Assembly (NCBI GenBank): GCA_008330645.1 | Contig: VLTN01000093.1 | Coordinates: 1-64,000, forward strand | DNA from: Cafeteria roenbergensis | Lineage: Eukaryota; Sar; Bigyra; Bicosoecida; Cafeteriaceae | Reading direction: 5' to 3' | Length of the DNA stretch: 64,000 nucleotides | Shown here: positions 7,462 through 64,000 of the stretch, one piece after another | Numbering within the stretch: the stretch's first letter is position 1 | Layout of the letters: every line of letters starts with the position of its first letter | Notes under the pieces: generated by a model | What the model was told of the DNA's origin: nothing | Databases searched by the model: none | The model's input: only the letters and a program-made list of their open reading frames with translations | Made by a program: the position numbers and the translations under genes

Positions 7462-8532
7462 CTGCTGAGCAAGTTCCTTCCGATAGGCTCTGTTCGTCTC
7501 AATTCATTTCGGATTCTCGTCACTGGCTTTGGTGAGCCAGCCGTGTGACATCAAGTCTGATGTGCCAGCTCAATGACGAAGGGGCGATTGCAGTGGCAAT
7601 CCGCTGCTACGTTTGGCTGTGCCTGCATCATAGCTGAGCGCGAATTCGTATGACCGATTTGACGGAATCGAAACTAGCTCAAGAGAGCTGCTTGCGCAGC
7701 GGTCCGCAACGATGCTGCTGCATACTTGAAGTGTGGCCTCGGGAGGCTGTGTCAGAGTGAGCGCGCGAGCTTGACAAACTGGATCCCGTTCGGCGCGACG
7801 ACGCCCGCCCGGGGTCGCCGAAGGGCTGGAAGGCAGGCGTCAATCGAGTCGAGCACGGACACTCACTCACACACCAATCGGGGAGGGTGAGAACGGACAC
7901 CAATCGGGGAGGGTGAGAAGGGCGGGTATGAGGGTCCGGCGGAGAGCCCGACATGGAGTCGAGCCGGTGTGTTCGCCCCGCTGGGCGAGGGCCCGGAGCT
8001 GCTGCCGCAACCAGCGGACGGCAGACGCTCCCCTGTGTGCGTGTGGGGGGGGGGTGGCAGGGTCAGCAGCTCCAGACCCACACCACGATTAAGACTCTCG
8101 ACATGGTTGGAGGCAGCTCGTTTGCCGCTGAGTTCAGGAGATAATTCAACCCCCGCGCCGAGGCAGAACGTCGGTGGGGCCACACTGGGTGCTCTGGTCT
8201 GGGACGAGTGGCGGCCGATGCTGGCCTGGAGCGCTACCTGGGTCAGTGGCGTTGGGGGTGTGGGGGGAAAGAACGCAGCCTTTGGCTTCATGGCAGAACG
8301 GCCATCGGCAGCCAGTGAGCGAGGAGGGAAGCGGCGGGCAGCCAGTCGGTGGTGGCTCTGTTGGGGGGCGGATTCGCAGTCGTGCATCACTCGTGTCCGG
8401 CTTGCAAGCTGTGGCAGTTGTCCAGTCGACGCTTCGCGTCTCGAAAGCAAGCCAGATCGGTCATACACCCGCGCTCGCCTCTGTGGGTGTGGAGCTGAGC
8501 GCACGCAAGTCGTCGGCAAGCTCGCGGGCTGC
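7462..8532. other. Convergent spacer, no gene seen
   Basis: This lies between the stop of the giant surface protein and the stop of lysozyme-like gene A. It holds a short direct repeat (separate entry) and a G run near 8045-8053. Open frames here have no homology I recognise and no consistent splice structure. Confidence 0.6.
7872..7919. repeat. 26-bp direct repeat, two copies
   Basis: A 22-base core beginning CACCAATCGGGG and ending GGTGAGAA starts at 7872 and again at 7898, with four bases between. It lies in the spacer between convergent genes. Confidence 0.75.
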
Positions 8533-9620
8533 TCAGCAGACGCCGCACACGTGGCACGTGCTCCACAGCTTGAACGTGTTGCCGCCCCAGCGGTAGACGT
8601 CGATGGCGCACTTGAGGTTGGTCTCCACGTCGCAGGGGGCGCGGCCGCCGGAGCAGGCCTTCCAGTTCATGCTGCGGGGTGGGGCAGCGTGGGCCGGGAG
8701 GGGGGGGGGGGGGCGGCACGCGCGTAGAACCGCAAACAGCGCGACACCACGTTGCGAGCCAGGCTGTCGCGCACCCGCACTTGCAGGCTGGCTCGAGAGC
8801 TGGGGCAACCCAACTGCCGGCTCACGAGTTGACCTGCCACAGTCCGACGTCGAAGGAGCCGTTGCTGTTCTCGTTGACGGCGTTGGCGTTGCCCCCGGAC
8901 TCGTGGGAGACGATGCACCGGCAGGCCTTCTGGTCCCAGCTGTGCTTGGCGCACCAGTCGGCGATGCTCTGCGGGGCGCGTGCCGGGCGGCAGTGCACTT
9001 CGCTCTGGACTTTGTCGCGTGTCGCTTGCCTTTGGGAGGCGTGCGCGAGGGTCACAGGCTGCTTCCGCGGTAGCAAGCGTGCTACGCATCATCGCGAAAC
9101 CAGGTTCCCAGCTCGCTGGCGTGCGGGGCGGCCGCGGATCTGGGCGAGCGAGACGGGGCGCGTGCCAGCGACTCACGACGTAGTGCGAGGACTCGCCGCA
9201 GGGGCACTTGCTGCAGCCGCCGGGGCAGTTTCCCTGCGGGAGAGCATACGCACAAACGAAAGCGGGGCGCCACCGTTGAGCACATGCCATGTTTGCCGCG
9301 CCAAGGCGCGCAAAAAGGACGCCAACGTGAAGTGGAGCAAGTTGAACTGCGGCACCATGACCCGTCCAGCGGCAATTCGCCATCGTCTGGCGATGCGCGC
9401 GGCTACGTCGTGCTCCCAGGCGCAAAACGAGCACACGGGCGCTGCGTCCCTCCCTCCCGGGTGGCCGAGCGGAGCTGTGGTCGGGCGAGGCGAGAGCGTC
9501 CGAACAATGGGAACTCACACCGCAGCCAGTGCCGAGGTCAGTGGCGTTGGCGGGGCGCGTGCCCGCCGACACGGCGACCACGAGTGCGGCAAGGGCGAGG
9601 AGGAGGGACGCGACGCGCAT
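8533..9620 (-). CDS. Secreted lysozyme-like protein, copy A
   Basis: Four exons on the minus strand: 9620-9519, 9233-9177, 8968-8826 and 8671-8533, encoding 146 residues. All introns are GT-AG, with donors GTGAG(T/C). The N-terminus (MRVASLLLAL...VSAG) is a strong signal peptide. The core carries an SHESGGNAN motif followed by FDVGLWQVN, the Glu...Asp-x-Gly-x-x-Gln-x-Asn pattern of the lysozyme/SLT superfamily; the Glu is the likely catalytic acid. Fourteen cysteines suggest seven disulfides and an extracellular or phagosomal site. Peptidoglycan hydrolysis during bacterivory is the natural inference. It is one of two tandem copies, with near-identical exons and unlike introns. The exact lysozyme family is not certain. 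Confidence 0.75.
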
Positions 9621-9985
9621 GCTTTCGTCAGGACCGGAGTGGGCTCGACCGGCGGCAGGAACACTGCAGCACTCGCTGACAACGTCGAGCTGCAGATTTT
9701 GCTGGCAGAGCTGAGTGGCGAGCGAATGTGCCGAAGGTGCGGCTGGCGAGTTCGTGCCTTGTGACGGCGACAACGATTCACGAGTTGAAGCAGGCAGGTT
9801 GAGCCGTTGCGCTGTACAACGCAGTATTGGAAGCGGGGACGGCTTCGCGGCGCCACGCGCGTCTCTGGCGGGGCCGGCCTTGGCGACTCCAGGGCCACCA
9901 CCTCGTTGCAGTGCGTGCACCCGCGCTCGCCCCTCAGGGATATCAGTGACCGTGGGCAGAGCCACTTGGCAGGCGGCCTGGCTGC

Positions 9986-11045
9986 TCAGCAGACGCCGCA
10001 CACGTGGCACGTGCTCCACAGCTTGAACGTGTTGCCGCCCCAGCGGTAGACGTCGATGGCGCACTTGAGGTTGGTCTCCACGTCGCAGGGGGCGGCGCCG
10101 CCGGAGCAGGAGTTCCAGTTCATGCTGCGGGGGTGGGGCAGCAGCGCTTGGCTTGGAGCGGCGCGAGTCATTCCGAGGGCACCACATCCAGGTTTGGCAG
10201 GTAAAGGGTTGACGCTCGTCCGTCGGCGATCGCAACCGCAGCAAACAATGGCACGCGCGCAGGCTCACGAGTTGACCTGCCACAGTCCGACGTCGAAGGA
10301 GCCGTTGCTGTTCTCGTTGACGGCGTTGGCGTTGCCCCCGGACTCGTGGGAGACGATGCACTGGCAGGCCTTCTGGTCCCAGCTGTACTTGGCGCACCAG
10401 TCGGCGATGCTCTGCGGAACGAGCGAAAGAGAGGCTTGGCGCTGGCTGCGACGCGTGAGACATGGAGGTCTGGAGGAGCAGGAGGCCAAACACACGGGAG
10501 GCCGCGCTTGGTGGTCACGCAGCGCCGGTGCGCGCTGCAGCGCGCAGCAGAGGCAACAAGCCGCACTTGTGCGCGAGTGACTCACGACGTAGTGCGAGGA
10601 CTCGCCGCAAGGGCACTTGCTGCAGCCGCCGGGGCAGTTTCCCTGCGAGGGGGGCGAGGACGGACAGGCATGAGGCGGACGGGGGTGTGGGTGTCGAGGA
10701 AATGAGGCAACGAATGCTGCGGCCGAGCTTTCACCGCGAGCTGGATCTCGTCCTTCCAATTTGCACCCCGGCCCGCCCAGCAAACGCTCGACAGGGCGCC
10801 CCACGCCCCCTCCCTCCCCCGCCCCCCGAATCGAAAAAAAAAAACCTTGCCAACTCCTGGGGTCTGGGGACAGGTCAGCTACGGCGAGCGAGGCACCGTG
10901 GCGGCGGCGCGCCCGCGGCGGACAGCTGCGTGCTCAAGCTCACGCCGCAGCCGGTGCCGAGGTCGGTGGCGTTGGCGGGGCGCGTGCCGGCAGACACGGC
11001 GACCACGAGTGCGGCAAGGGCAAGGAGGAGGGACGCGACGCGCAT
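9986..11045 (-). CDS. Secreted lysozyme-like protein, copy B
   Basis: Four exons: 11045-10944, 10642-10586, 10411-10269 and 10124-9986, encoding 146 residues. Exon lengths (102, 57, 143, 139) and intron phases (0, 0, 2) are identical to copy A. Signal peptide, SHESGGNAN, FDVGLWQVN and all 14 cysteines are kept. The protein differences from A that I see are few: WCAKYSW for WCAKHSW, ACQC for ACRC, and NWNSCSGGAAPC for NWKACSGGRAPC. Intron lengths are 301, 174 and 144 against 285, 208 and 154 in A, and the intron sequences do not align beyond the splice-site edges. It lies upstream of A on the same strand with about 365 bp between the two coding regions, and divergent from the membrane protein starting at 11534. 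Confidence 0.75.
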
Positions 11046-31469: not shown

Positions 31470-32301
31470 GCGCGCGGCGTATGAGCGCGCAGTCTTTGCC
31501 CGCCGCTGCGCTCAAGCCCCTCACTTGCGTTTCTTCCATCGGGCTGCCTGCGTCATCCTCGCGCGTGTGTGAGTGACTGAGTGACTGACTGTGAGTCCCG
31601 TCCGCACCCGGCAGCCGCCCGTGCTCTCTGTTCGGCGGTTGCGGGTTTGCGCCGGCCGGACCATTCAAGAATGGGACAATGTTTGCCACTGCATTGCATA
31701 GCACAGATTCGGCCCAAGCCTGCACACTTGACCAGCGCAGCCCACTCGTTCCGGGACTGCATCCGTGGAATGGGGGGGCGAACGCTGCCGCAAAGACGCG
31801 ACAAATGCAGAGAGTGCGAGTGGGCAGAGGTGAGCCGTGCAGACAGTCGACTGGGCAGAGGTGAGCCGTGCAGACAGTCGACTGGGCAGAGGTGAGCCGT
31901 GCAGAGAGTCGACTGGGCAGAGGTGAGCCGTGCAGACAGTCGACTGGGCAGAGGTGAGCCGTGCAGAGAGTGCGAGTGGGCAGAGGTGAGCCGTGCAGAG
32001 AGTGCGAGTGGGCAGAGGTGAGCCGTGCAGAGAGTGCGAGTGGGCAGAGGTGAGCCGTGCAGAGAGTGCGAGTGGGCAGAGGTGAGCCGTGCAGACAGTC
32101 GAGTGGGCAGAGGTGAGCCGTGCAGAGAGTGCGAGTGTTGGCGCCGCCTCGAGTGCTGCGTGCGCCGGTGGTGGCAGGCACCCTTGTGGGCGCTGGCGGC
32201 CAAGCAAGCCCCCCCGGGGCCGCCGCCGACCGAGCAGGCACCGCCCAGCGCTCACTCAACGCAGCCGCAGCAAGCTGCGCTGCGGTCTAGCCCGCCAATG
32301 G
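31470..32301. other. Convergent spacer with minisatellite
   Basis: Between the HMGR stop and the stop of the minus-strand unknown gene. Left part: GTGAGTGACTGA-type short repeats (31570-31595) and a lower-GC patch (31665-31700). Centre: a 10-copy minisatellite. No gene seen; open frames across the repeat are by-products. Confidence 0.6.
31807..32140. repeat. 31/32-bp minisatellite, about ten copies
   Basis: Ten copies of a unit with core GGTGAGCCGTGCAGA, starting at 31830, 31861, 31892, 31923, 31954, 31986, 32018, 32050, 32082 and 32113. Two unit types occur: one with CAGTCGACTGG or GAGTCGACTGG (31 bp) and one with GAGTGCGAGTGG (32 bp). They are grouped: 31-bp units on the left, 32-bp on the right, which points to local expansion. 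Confidence 0.95.
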
Positions 32302-61108: not shown

Positions 61109-64000
61109 ATGGGGGCCGACATGATGACGGTTCCCTGGGCGAGCATGCTCCCTGCGCCGGCAGTCAGCCCAGCCGGCGCGGCGTTGGCGGGAACGCTGTC
61201 CGCCGCCCCGACGATAATCGGGACGTTGTGGGGCCTCGCCTGCGTGGCCAGGCGGCGAGGCCACGCGTACATGAAGGTGAGCCAAGCAGGCGTCGGGCTG
61301 ACCCCCTGGCCATCGGCGGACTGGTGACGTCGCGTCGCCCTTGCGGCCTGAGGCTTGCCACGCCCGCTTGCCCGGCGCGCCCCGCTGCTGCGCTCCCGCA
61401 GACCCGGTGGTGGTTCCTGGGCTTCCTGCAGTGCCTTGCAGTGTATGTGTTTGCGCTCGGCCCGTCGTCAGTCCAACAGGCGACAGTTGCCTCTTGCTAC
61501 AGGGGCCACGCGAGCGGAGCGGGGACGGCGCTCGAAGCGGTCGTGCGGTCGCTCCAGTTGCCGTGGGACGAGGCCTCCACCGTGGACCGCTGCGCCTCTG
61601 AGGCAGTGCTCGACGAAACTCTGGGGCCGGGTTGGACCACTGAGGAGCGCCCCGCGTCGCCGTGGAGCTTGACCAGCAACGCCGACGCAGGCTTGTTTGA
61701 TAAGCCGTTGAGCTGCCGGTCACGGTCTGCCATTCCGGCAGTGCTCTCTGCCAACGAGAGCTCGCCTTTGCTCCTGCTGCGCGGCTTCTACTACCAGCAG
61801 TTTATGCAGTTTGTCGAGACTGCGACTCTTGCCGAGGCGGGGCTTGCCCAGCGCCTCAGCGAGGACAACCGCAGCCCGGAGGGAAACGTGGCCGGCAGCG
61901 TGCCCCTCCCTGACGCGTTCGACCAAGCGTCCACGTCGCTGTTCGGCGTCTACGACAGCGCCATCGTGCAGAGCGCGTCGGGCTTTGCCGTCGTCAACGC
62001 GGCCTACTCGCAGGCGCTCAACTGCGCCTCCCGCTCCGCCGACCCGGCAGCCGCCGAGGCGGAGGTGGGCCTGCAGTGCTTGTCGGAGCGGTCCCTGACG
62101 ATCCTGTCGTCGGGGATGATGTTCGTGATCCTCTACGTCAGACTTCGGCGCCTCATTGACCTGGCCGACGCGCAGACGCTCGCCGCCGACCCTCTGCAAA
62201 CGCCCGCAGACATGGTTCGGCTGGGGCGGCTTCGCGCGGGCGCGTCGGCGCTGAGCTCGCTGCGGGACGTGGCGTTGTTCATGATCCCGACAGTGCTTCT
62301 TGTTGTCATTTTCGTCGTTTTGACCACGGCAGGCGCTTCGCACGCGTGCGAGGACTCCTTGCTCGTCAAGATGCTCACACTCGCTGCGTTTGCCTTGCCG
62401 CTGCCCGACCTCGCTGCGCGCGGCCTGTTTCGCCTGGCCTCTCGGCACGAGGTGCTCGGCTTCAGGGTCGAGGCGTGGCTGACCGCGGTGTTGCTTCTGC
62501 TGGCCTTTGGCCTTCGCATCATCAGCCGAACGATCTTGTTCCGCTTTGTCATTGCAAGCGGCGCGATGGCAGGCATCGTGTGCGGACTGGTTGTGCTTGT
62601 CACGCTCGCCCTGCCTGCCCACTGGGCCGCCTACGACGTCTGGCGGGACCCCATGCACCGCTTCACCAACAGGTGCGGCCGCAGGCTCCTCCGCAGGTGC
62701 CGCCCCGCCAGCTCGAGCATCAGGCAGGCCGCATCCAGCAGACGACGATCATCCATCGACGATGTAGAGCTCGCGCACAGCGCGACAGGCTCGGCGCCGG
62801 ACGGAGCATCCAGGCCCGGCCTGGTTGGCAATGGCGGAGGCTGCTGCTTGTGCTGCCGCAGCAGCGACCATGGGCTTCGGCGGAGCTTGGTGAGCGTGCT
62901 GACGCACGTCGTGGCGATGCTGGACAACCTCGCGAGCCCGGCGGTGCTGGTGGTGCAGCTGCTGCTCGGGGCATCGCTGCTGTGCGCGTCGGGCCACGGG
63001 GTGGGGTGCCTGGAGCAGAGCCAGCCGTGGCGTCGGTGGTGCGGTCTGTGCAGCTTCGTGTGCCACTGCGGGTGTTGCCGCTACCGGGTGCGGTCGGGCA
63101 GGCGCTGTGGCTGCAGTGACGCGGCGGTGGGAGCGTGGGCGCTCGCCGTGGAGCGGTCCACTGGGCTGCAGGTCGGGCCTCTGGCCCGCGAGGGCGCGGC
63201 CGTGAAGCCGCGGTACGGCGACGCGCCGGGAGCCAAGCCCGACCCGGGGCAGCCGGCGGCGGAGGCCGCGGCCACCCACCTGTCGGCGACGTCCCGGCGG
63301 CAGAGCGGCTCCTTGCGCTTCGGAGGCGGCACGAGCGCGGGGCCCCTTGCGGACGACGAGTCGGATGACAGCGAGGGCGTGGGCGTCGAGGAGGTGCTGC
63401 GGACGGCAGGCGCGCGGGAGGTGTTTGTGCAGGTGAGTCGCGGCGCTTCGACGCCGAGCGGCACCGCGCGGGGGTCCAGCGAGGGCGGGAGTCACGCGCG
63501 CGCCGCGCAGTGCCCGCGGCCTTGGAGGCTGCCGGTGGGGCTCTCGGCATCAGTGGGGTGGATGGGGGTGGGGGGGCATCGCATCGGGCCGCCATCAGCG
63601 GGGGCGCTGTATCCACGCCGCGCGCACGGTGCCGGGCGGCCGGGGCAACGGCTTTGGGAGGGGGGGGGGGGGGGGGGGGGGAGAGAGAAAGTGCGCTTTG
63701 AGGCTTGCGAGCTCGCCTGACCGCTCTCACGCGCCCGCTGTTGCCGCCGCCTTGCTCCTCGGGGCTCGTGATCGCAGCACCTTCGCCAGGAGTTTTGCGT
63801 GGAGTCGGCGCTGTTCGTGCTGGAGTGCTGGCGGCTCGAGGACGAGGACGCGGTGCACGACGCCGACGCGGAGGGCGCTGCGGGGCTGATTTGGGACCGC
63901 TTCGTGCGGCCTGGGTCGGAGATGTGGGTGAACCTGAGCTCGCGTGCGGTCCGCAGCGTGTCGCGGTCGCTTCGGGAGCTGAACGAGCTCGGGCTGCAGA
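61109..64000 (+). CDS. Seven-helix receptor-like protein with C-terminal RGS domain (3' partial)
   Basis: Exons seen: 61109-61276, 61402-63432 and 63790 to the window edge; donors GTGAGC and GTGAGT, acceptors CGCAG and CCAG, phase 0 throughout. Exon 1 gives helix 1 (AGAALAGTLSAAPTIIGTLWG). Exon 2 begins TRWWFLGFLQCLAVYVFALGP (helix 2), then an extracellular-looking loop of about 180 residues with cysteines. Helices near LTILSSGMMFVILY, FMIPTVLLVVIFVVL, MLTLAAFALPL, WLTAVLLLLAFGL and FVIASGAMAGIVCG follow. The cytosolic part leads into EVLRTAGAREVFVQ, spliced to EFCVESALFVLECWRLED and GLIWDRFVRPGSEMWVNLSSR, an RGS domain (GTPase accelerator of G-alpha). The combination resembles plant RGS1-type receptors. 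Intron 2 holds a 22-G run. Confidence 0.75.

What the first reader, a model, noticed from the sequence alone, without database searches (positions are those of the whole stretch)
8533..11045. Lysozyme-like twins: exons almost identical, introns unrelated
The four exons of copies A and B have identical lengths and phases and differ at only about 13 of 441 coding bases by my count (exon 1: 6, exon 2: 1, exon 3: 2, exon 4: 4). Synonymous change is nearly nil in exons 2-4. The introns at the same positions do not align beyond about 15 bases at the edges. Purifying selection does not protect synonymous sites, so exon-limited homogenisation is suggested, for example conversion templated by spliced cDNA. 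Rapid intron turnover is the alternative.
Basis: partly seen in the sequence, partly recalled or inferred. Interest (0 to 1): 0.7.

Follow-up and report, generated by a model that had tools for sequence, protein, structure and literature searches.

The report
Twin lysozyme-like genes kept alike
Two neighbouring lysozyme-like genes of a bacteria-eating marine flagellate have almost the same coding sequence but unrelated introns, most likely because an old gene pair keeps copying its exons from one another while strong codon preference slows the rest; this is a tidy example of a known process rather than a new one.

Summary
Copies A and B (minus strand) have four exons each of 102, 57, 143 and 139 nt and differ at 13 of 441 bases (6/1/2/4); 7 changes are synonymous, 6 of them in exon 1. 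Intron cores align no better than shuffles. The assembly matches Cafeteria burkhardae strain BVI by size; no third copy was found. Extreme codon bias (GC3 0.95) explains much of the low dS: at saturation only about 34 of 133 shared codons would differ. But 7 do, and in exons 2-4 only 1 of 100 against about 20 expected, rare codons included. So exons look younger than introns. Unlinked actin and beta-tubulin pairs of the same genome show near-identical coding blocks beside saturated patches, with unrelated non-coding DNA. I favour an old tandem duplication with ectopic gene conversion confined to exons because introns no longer match. A cDNA template is not shown (both copies keep the same introns, no retrocopy found) but not excluded. 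All five amino-acid differences lie in exons 3-4, four of them basic to neutral, with no synonymous change there, suggesting selection keeps the proteins distinct.

The parts
9519..9620 (-). copy A exon 1 (102 nt, start codon; signal-peptide-like stretch by eye)
   Evidence: gene model by GTGAG..GCAG borders and open frame; 6 synonymous differences from B
9234..9518 (-). copy A intron 1 (285 nt)
   Evidence: unrelated to B intron 1
9177..9233 (-). copy A exon 2 (57 nt)
   Evidence: 1 synonymous difference
8969..9176 (-). copy A intron 2 (208 nt)
   Evidence: core unrelated to B intron 2
8826..8968 (-). copy A exon 3 (143 nt; carries the ESGGN..NGSFDVGLWQVNS lysozyme stretch)
   Evidence: 2 nt differences, both amino-acid changing
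8672..8825 (-). copy A intron 3 (154 nt)
   Evidence: core unrelated to B intron 3; last 17 nt match B intron 3 with one 1-nt indel
8533..8671 (-). copy A exon 4 (139 nt, stop)
   Evidence: 4 nt differences, all amino-acid changing
10944..11045 (-). copy B exon 1
10643..10943 (-). copy B intron 1 (301 nt)
10586..10642 (-). copy B exon 2
10412..10585 (-). copy B intron 2 (174 nt)
10269..10411 (-). copy B exon 3
10125..10268 (-). copy B intron 3 (144 nt)
9986..10124 (-). copy B exon 4
8466..8482 (-). 17-nt 3' flank stretch of A matching 9918-9934 of B (16 of 17, one base out of register); relic of the duplicated segment or a conserved 3' element
   Evidence: 3 of 300 shuffles as good; window coordinates converted by me from the alignment offsets

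Best explanation
A and B are an old head-to-tail tandem duplication of a secreted lysozyme-like gene in a bacteria-eating flagellate. Non-coding DNA (introns, flanks) has diverged to the point where it can hardly be aligned. The exons were made alike again by ectopic gene conversion between the copies, which can only run where the copies still match, that is inside exons; exons 3 and 4 (and probably 2) were reset most recently and exon 1 (signal peptide) is older. Very strong codon preference slows the drift between resets and so magnifies the contrast. Selection keeps five amino-acid differences, four of them basic in A and neutral in B, so the two enzymes may work at different charge or pH. 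Shown: the pattern, the codon-bias baseline, the excess identity, and the mosaic in two control pairs. Inferred: that conversion, rather than some site-by-site constraint, made it; that the template was DNA; that the protein is secreted and acts on cell walls; and that the amino-acid differences matter.
For: Synonymous identity far above a saturation baseline built from the genes' own codon use: 126 of 133 shared degenerate codons equal against 98.7 +/- 3.2 (maximum 110 in 5000 permutations); exons 2-4 99 of 100 against 79.9 +/- 2.7, maximum 90. With codon use pooled from five families, lysozyme included (2771 codons), exons 2-4 expect 19.7 differences, 1 seen, 0 of 20000 simulations as low. 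The baseline is calibrated: two alpha/beta-tubulin comparisons give 1.00 and 0.95 of saturation. Codons rare in the other families are shared: 26 of 27 occurrences in exons 2-4 (a shared position counts once from each copy) against 2.4 expected; alpha/beta controls 4 of 27 (2.8 expected) and 6 of 30 (3.1). Synonymous differences are clustered; simulations as extreme, scan test and clean-run test: lysozyme 17 and 70 of 5000, actin 25 and 6, beta-tubulin 250 and 10. In actin codons 4-166 have 0 differences against 31.9 at saturation, codons 167-224 10 against 10.6 (borders chosen after seeing the data). Beta-tubulin exons 2, 3 and the first 40 codons of exon 4 are at saturation (4 vs 3.8, 3 vs 1.8, 7 vs 7.5) while the other 349 codons have 10 vs 54.2, so block edges lie inside exons. 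In the near-identical pair C36/C100 introns 1 and 2 have 0 of 351 substitutions against 12 of 1944 in exons. A second tandem pair on the same contig carries a near-identical block that includes a putative intron.
Against: No orthologue from another strain or species was available, so the decisive sign of concerted evolution (copies within a strain closer than orthologues between strains) was not tested. Exons of 57, 143 and 139 nt flanked by non-matching DNA are short substrates for recombination. Exons 2, 3 and 4 are all alike across unrelated introns, which DNA conversion must reach by separate events. With pooled codon use exon 1 is not clearly below saturation (6 vs 10.3, P 0.064) and exon 2 only marginally (1 vs 3.9, P 0.049). 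Control pairs were picked from family searches for similar scores, not at random; HSP70 copies and other tubulin and protease hits were not compared. The cathepsin pair shows an intermediate 0.64 of saturation without clear blocks and 20 of 48 rare codons shared. In C36/C100 intron 3 has 11 substitutions in 245, all in its last 90 nt, so some intron stretches change fast.
Confidence: 0.68

Rival explanations
1. Conversion templated by spliced RNA or cDNA: reverse-transcribed message of one copy pairs with the other gene; exon mismatches are corrected while introns are looped out and kept.
For: Three consecutive short exons (57, 143, 139 nt) are alike across unrelated introns, and a spliced template would be one continuous 339-nt match. 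In lysozyme and beta-tubulin the alike part is towards the 3' end, as with 5'-truncated cDNA. The species carries Ngaro retrotransposons with reverse transcriptase (PMC8547959, passages).
Against: Both copies keep the same three introns; no intronless copy found in the genome. In actin the longest clean run is towards the 5' side and a saturated patch is in the middle. The 17-nt match at the 3' end of intron 3 next to exon 4 (score 14; none of 114 other intron pairs reaches it, maximum 12) could not come from a spliced template, though it is C-rich and weak evidence.
Confidence: 0.15
2. No conversion: an old pair in which selection on protein and on codons keeps exons alike while introns drift freely.
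For: Codon bias is extreme (GC3 0.95; Cys 28 of 28 TGC and Asn 23 of 23 AAC in A plus B) and the permutation baseline already gives 98.7 of the 126 equal codons. Some shared rare codons are AGC serines, which change slowly.
Against: Weakly biased and rare codons such as GGA, GGG, ACG and CTG are also shared, differences are clustered, and saturated stretches sit next to clean ones within one exon of beta-tubulin and of actin.
Confidence: 0.13
3. Recent duplication followed by rapid intron turnover.
For: Overall dS is only 0.073; in beta-tubulin intron 3 lies 12 nt apart in the two copies, so introns can shift; intron 3 of C36/C100 has a dense patch of changes.
Against: Intron cores cannot be aligned and flanks hardly; no relative of either intron set was found elsewhere in the genome; in C36/C100 and in the second tandem pair introns are alignable; intron order, phase and rough length are kept.
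Confidence: 0.04

Closest known systems
[quoted passage not shown]
   Same: Lysozyme gene copies with concerted evolution in part and divergence elsewhere (title seen in the reference list of PMC2720389; that Lyz genes evolve in concert in ruminants and rodents seen in passages of PMC3141428).
   Different: Vertebrate c-type genes; I did not see the 1999 paper itself. Here intron cores are beyond alignment and codon bias is extreme.
Leishmania beta-tubulin loci (PMC1533823, passages)
   Same: Protist paralogues with homogenised coding sequence and diverged untranslated and flanking DNA, explained there perhaps by ectopic gene conversion.
   Different: Introns are not dealt with in the passages read; separate loci rather than one tandem pair.
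Chlamydomonas beta-tubulin pair (recalled, not looked up)
   Same: Near-identical coding sequence, same intron positions, different intron sequence, GC-rich genome.
   Different: From memory only; two genes with identical protein.
Red and green opsin genes (PMC3924837, passages)
   Same: Conversion with selection keeping a few functional amino-acid differences.
   Different: There the introns are homogenised and the exons diverge: the reverse of this case.

Membership tests
Concerted evolution by ectopic gene conversion | Synonymous sites of paralogues more alike than the age of the pair allows | tested here: met
   Exons 2-4: 1 of 100 against about 20 expected at saturation, intron cores unalignable
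Concerted evolution by ectopic gene conversion | Mosaic of identical blocks and diverged patches | tested here: met
   Simulations as extreme (scan test; clean-run test): lysozyme 17 and 70 of 5000, actin 25 and 6, beta-tubulin 250 and 10; the cathepsin pair was not put through this test and shows no clear blocks by 40-codon windows
Concerted evolution by ectopic gene conversion | Paralogues within a strain closer than orthologues between strains | not testable with these tools
   No other strain or species of the group was found; the search for related loci gave no relative in genome contigs or viral contigs
cDNA-templated conversion | Intron loss or intronless copies | tested here: not met
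   Same three introns in both copies; own-genome searches found only the two copies
cDNA-templated conversion | All exons of the message homogenised alike, short ones too | tested here: inconclusive
   Lysozyme exon 2 (57 nt) 1 vs 4.3 or 3.9, P 0.026 or 0.049; beta-tubulin exons 2 and 3 not homogenised, exon 1 uninformative at 0 vs 2.1
C-type lysozyme, Pfam PF00062 | Score above the curated cut-off | tested here: not met
   23.4 (A) and 22.3 bits (B) against 27; yet the best PDB matches are lysozymes, first 1gd6 at E 4.7e-7
Lysozyme-like SLT_3 (PF18896) and SLT (PF01464) | Score above the curated cut-off | tested here: met
   34 and 34.6 bits against 27; 28.7 and 28.7 against 21.3
C-type lysozyme / lysozyme superfamily | Catalytic Glu and Asp in ES..NGS.D | tested here: inconclusive
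   Both letters align with lysozyme chain 1gd6; that these are the catalytic pair is recalled; activity not tested

The most novel reading that the evidence does not exclude
In this flagellate, spliced messages (RNA or cDNA) act as repair templates that rewrite the exons of related genes while leaving introns in place, so that coding sequence is homogenised genome-wide between tandem and unlinked paralogues.
Probability: 0.12. Interest if true: 0.8.

Novelty: new member of a known kind. Interest (0 to 1): 0.38.

Why it matters
It warns that in a gene with GC3 near 0.95 a tiny dS is weak evidence by itself, and gives a simple calibrated way (permuting codons within the gene) to see what is left over. 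What is left over points to conversion between paralogues in a stramenopile reported as apparently diploid with no known sexual cycle (PMC6972860, passages), in tandem and unlinked genes alike. Assemblies of four strains of the species are published (same paper), so the template question (DNA or spliced message) is open to a direct test.

Tried and rejected
Recent duplication: rejected because intron cores cannot be aligned and flanks hardly. Intron donors or mobile introns: none found (this DNA search skips simple repeats and very common words). Pure codon-bias saturation: rejected for exons 3 and 4 and for exons 2-4 together. A bacterial, archaeal or viral source of the gene: the search for related loci confirmed no relative in genome contigs (449 pattern matches) or viral contigs (38) (single-protein queries reach close relatives only). 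Light-harvesting genes (PF00504): none found, which fits a non-photosynthetic host. A blind survey of 180 kb of contig C1 plus contig C93 gave, on C1, only repeats near the contig start and one short tandem repeat, no usable gene pair. Rfam: no match in the window. Assembly artefact: the source assembly was polished with long and then short reads (PMC6972860, passages); I judge it unlikely that polishing made exons of up to 143 nt alike, since 2 x 300-base reads reach into the differing introns, but reads were not checked. Structure prediction was not run. Literature: listings (18 of 18 papers; 20 of 47; 9 of 9; 10 of 10; 10 of 102; none; 7 of 7; 7 of 7) show no title on this gene pair; papers were seen as listings or passages only, none in full.

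Full report
WHAT IS THERE. On the minus strand of the window two genes lie head to tail, B (11045 to 9986) upstream of A (9620 to 8533). Each has four exons of 102, 57, 143 and 139 nt with GTGAG donors and GCAG acceptors, giving 146-residue proteins that differ at five positions. Differences number 13 of 441 nt (6, 1, 2, 4 per exon). Seven are synonymous, six of these in exon 1 and one in exon 2; exons 3 and 4 have no synonymous change but six amino-acid-changing bases. By the Nei-Gojobori method dS is 0.224 in exon 1, 0.086 in exon 2, 0 in exons 3 and 4, 0.073 overall; dN is 0.018 overall.

INTRONS AND FLANKS. Introns are 285/301, 208/174 and 154/144 nt. Aligned whole, introns 2 and 3 score above nearly all shuffles (0 and 1 of 200 as good; intron 1 35 of 200), but trimmed by 20 nt at each end the scores were matched by 146, 21 and 136 of 200 shuffles. 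Local matches after trimming 8 nt were likewise ordinary: 61, 230 and 76 of 300. At the edges only the 3' end of intron 3 stands out: its last 17 nt match with one 1-nt indel, a score that none of 114 other pairings among 16 introns reached, though one came to 12. Faint homology remains in the flanks (global tests: 1 of 200 for the first 100 nt upstream, 0 of 200 for the first 150 nt downstream; local: one 16-of-17 match in the 3' flank, 3 of 300). So a DNA segment larger than the coding exons seems to have been duplicated, long ago.

HOST. The window is the first 64 kb of a 77,465-base contig (C93) in an assembly of 36,303,456 bases in 167 contigs. The window's G+C is 70.2%. The published assembly of Cafeteria (C. 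roenbergensis in that paper, C. burkhardae in later ones) strain BVI has 170 contigs, 36,327,047 bases and 70.1% G+C (PMC6972860, passages). I take this as the source; it is a match by size, not a stated identity. It is a bacteria-eating flagellate that appears to be diploid. A DNA, a protein and two family searches of the genome found only these two copies; such searches give lower bounds.

THE PROTEIN. Both proteins begin with a hydrophobic stretch that looks like a signal peptide (by eye). They score above the cut-off for SLT_3 and SLT and below it for c-type lysozyme, while the best matches in the PDB are lysozymes, first 1gd6 at E 4.7e-7 (that it is the silkworm enzyme is recalled). A secreted or phagosomal peptidoglycan hydrolase is the natural guess. 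All five differences fall in exons 3 and 4, and four replace H, R, K, R in A by Y, Q, N, A in B; computed pI of the part from residue 27 is 6.35 against 5.06.

CODON BIAS BASELINE. GC3 is 0.95 in both copies, and many residues use one codon only. Permuting synonymous codons within B shows what two fully saturated copies would share: 98.7 +/- 3.2 of 133 codons. So about three quarters of the codon identity is free. The observed 126 is still far above (maximum of 5000 permutations: 110), and in exons 2-4 it is 99 of 100 against 79.9 +/- 2.7, maximum 90. Four estimates of expected differences in exons 2-4 run from 18.4 to 22.9. With pooled usage exon 1 is not clearly below saturation (6 vs 10.3, P 0.064; with own usage 6 vs 13.0, P 0.005) and exon 2 is marginal (1 vs 3.9, P 0.049), whereas exons 3 and 4 are far below (0 vs 8.2 and 0 vs 7.6). 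The method gives 1.00 and 0.95 of saturation for alpha against beta tubulin. Codons rare in the other families are shared in 26 of 27 occurrences in exons 2-4, where usage alone predicts 2.4; several are AGC serines, which change slowly, but GGA, GGG, ACG and CTG are among them too.

CONTROLS IN THE SAME GENOME. Actin copies on contigs C57 and C69 differ at 23 nt over 374 codons, with unrelated sequence on both sides of the shared exon (184 and 97 of 200 shuffles as good); synonymous differences are 16 against 71.5 at saturation and are clustered. Codons 4-166 have none against 31.9 expected, codons 167-224 have 10 against 10.6, codons 225-374 have 5 against 28.7 (borders set after seeing the data). 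Beta-tubulin copies on C13 and C50 have unrelated intron cores (19, 120 and 84 of 200 shuffles as good); exons 2 and 3 and the first 40 codons of exon 4 are saturated, the remaining 349 codons have 10 differences against 54.2. In both pairs the edge between the two states lies inside an exon, which selection on the whole message does not explain and a conversion tract does. A cathepsin pair (C54, C63) is intermediate at 0.64 without clear blocks. A near-identical pair (C36, C100), perhaps alleles, has 0 of 351 substitutions in introns 1 and 2, 11 of 245 in intron 3 and 12 of 1944 in exons: introns are alignable there, though one has a fast patch. A second tandem pair on C93 has near-identical blocks that include a GTGAG-to-GCAG stretch read as an intron. 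HSP70 hits were not compared, and pairs were picked for similar scores, so this is not a random survey.

MECHANISM. The simplest account is an old tandem duplication whose non-coding parts have drifted past recognition, with later conversion events that could start only where matching sequence remained. Exons 3 and 4, and probably exon 2, were reset recently; exon 1 was not. Codon preference then keeps the reset exons alike for longer. The retained amino-acid differences, without a single synonymous one beside them in exons 3 and 4, suggest that selection holds the two proteins apart against conversion, as described for opsins (PMC3924837, passages), though six changes are too few for a firm test.

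DNA OR cDNA. For it speak three short neighbouring exons alike across unrelated introns and a tendency to 3' homogenisation in lysozyme and beta-tubulin. Against it speak the unchanged set of introns, the lack of intronless copies, the unreset short exons of beta-tubulin, the actin pattern and, weakly, the intron 3 edge. I put it at 0.15. Orthologues from the other strains would settle it; none was found with these tools.

KNOWN OR NEW. Coding homogenisation with diverged non-coding DNA has been described, for instance in Leishmania beta-tubulin (PMC1533823, passages), and a paper on mosaic evolution of ruminant lysozyme genes is in print (title only seen). This is a new example in a stramenopile, with an unusually sharp contrast because of codon bias.

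Noticed in passing
window 61380-64000, continuing to C93 68001 (L015): A second tandem gene pair: blocks of mostly 95-100% identity per 60-base window (including a putative intron at 63433-63777) broken by short patches that are nearly unrelated, in a frame that stays open in both copies; looks like conversion plus a hypervariable region, perhaps of a membrane protein. No Pfam hit for the first copy's frame; an RGS-like 3' exon is my reading by eye only.
   Followed up: partly
G000 C57:14900-17100 (L049) and C69:7700-9900 (L050): Unlinked actin copies, coding sequence almost identical with differences clustered in patches, flanks unrelated from a few bases outside the coding exon.
   Followed up: yes
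G000 C13 (L038) and C50 (L039): Beta-tubulin pair: intron 3 sits 12 nt apart in the two copies, suggesting intron sliding or separate gain; 5' part saturated at synonymous sites, 3' part homogenised.
   Followed up: partly
G000 C36:130700-133700 (L047) and C100 (L048); also C10 and C110: Near-identical actin-related genes on a large and a small contig: probably alleles left as separate contigs; C10 and C110 hits have the same exon spacing; intron 3 of the C36/C100 pair has a dense patch of changes in its last 90 nt.
   Followed up: partly
C93 71172-75030 (L015, L016) and C1:6-3662 (L017): Related repeats (about 92-98%) at the right end of C93 and the left end of C1, inverted relative to each other; possibly subtelomeric.
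   Followed up: no
G000 C154:1943-6982: HSP70 matches on contig C154, some with an in-frame TGA; not explained.
   Followed up: no
window 31806-32137 and C93 73307-73842: Local tandem repeats with copies about 63 nt and about 272 nt apart.
   Followed up: no
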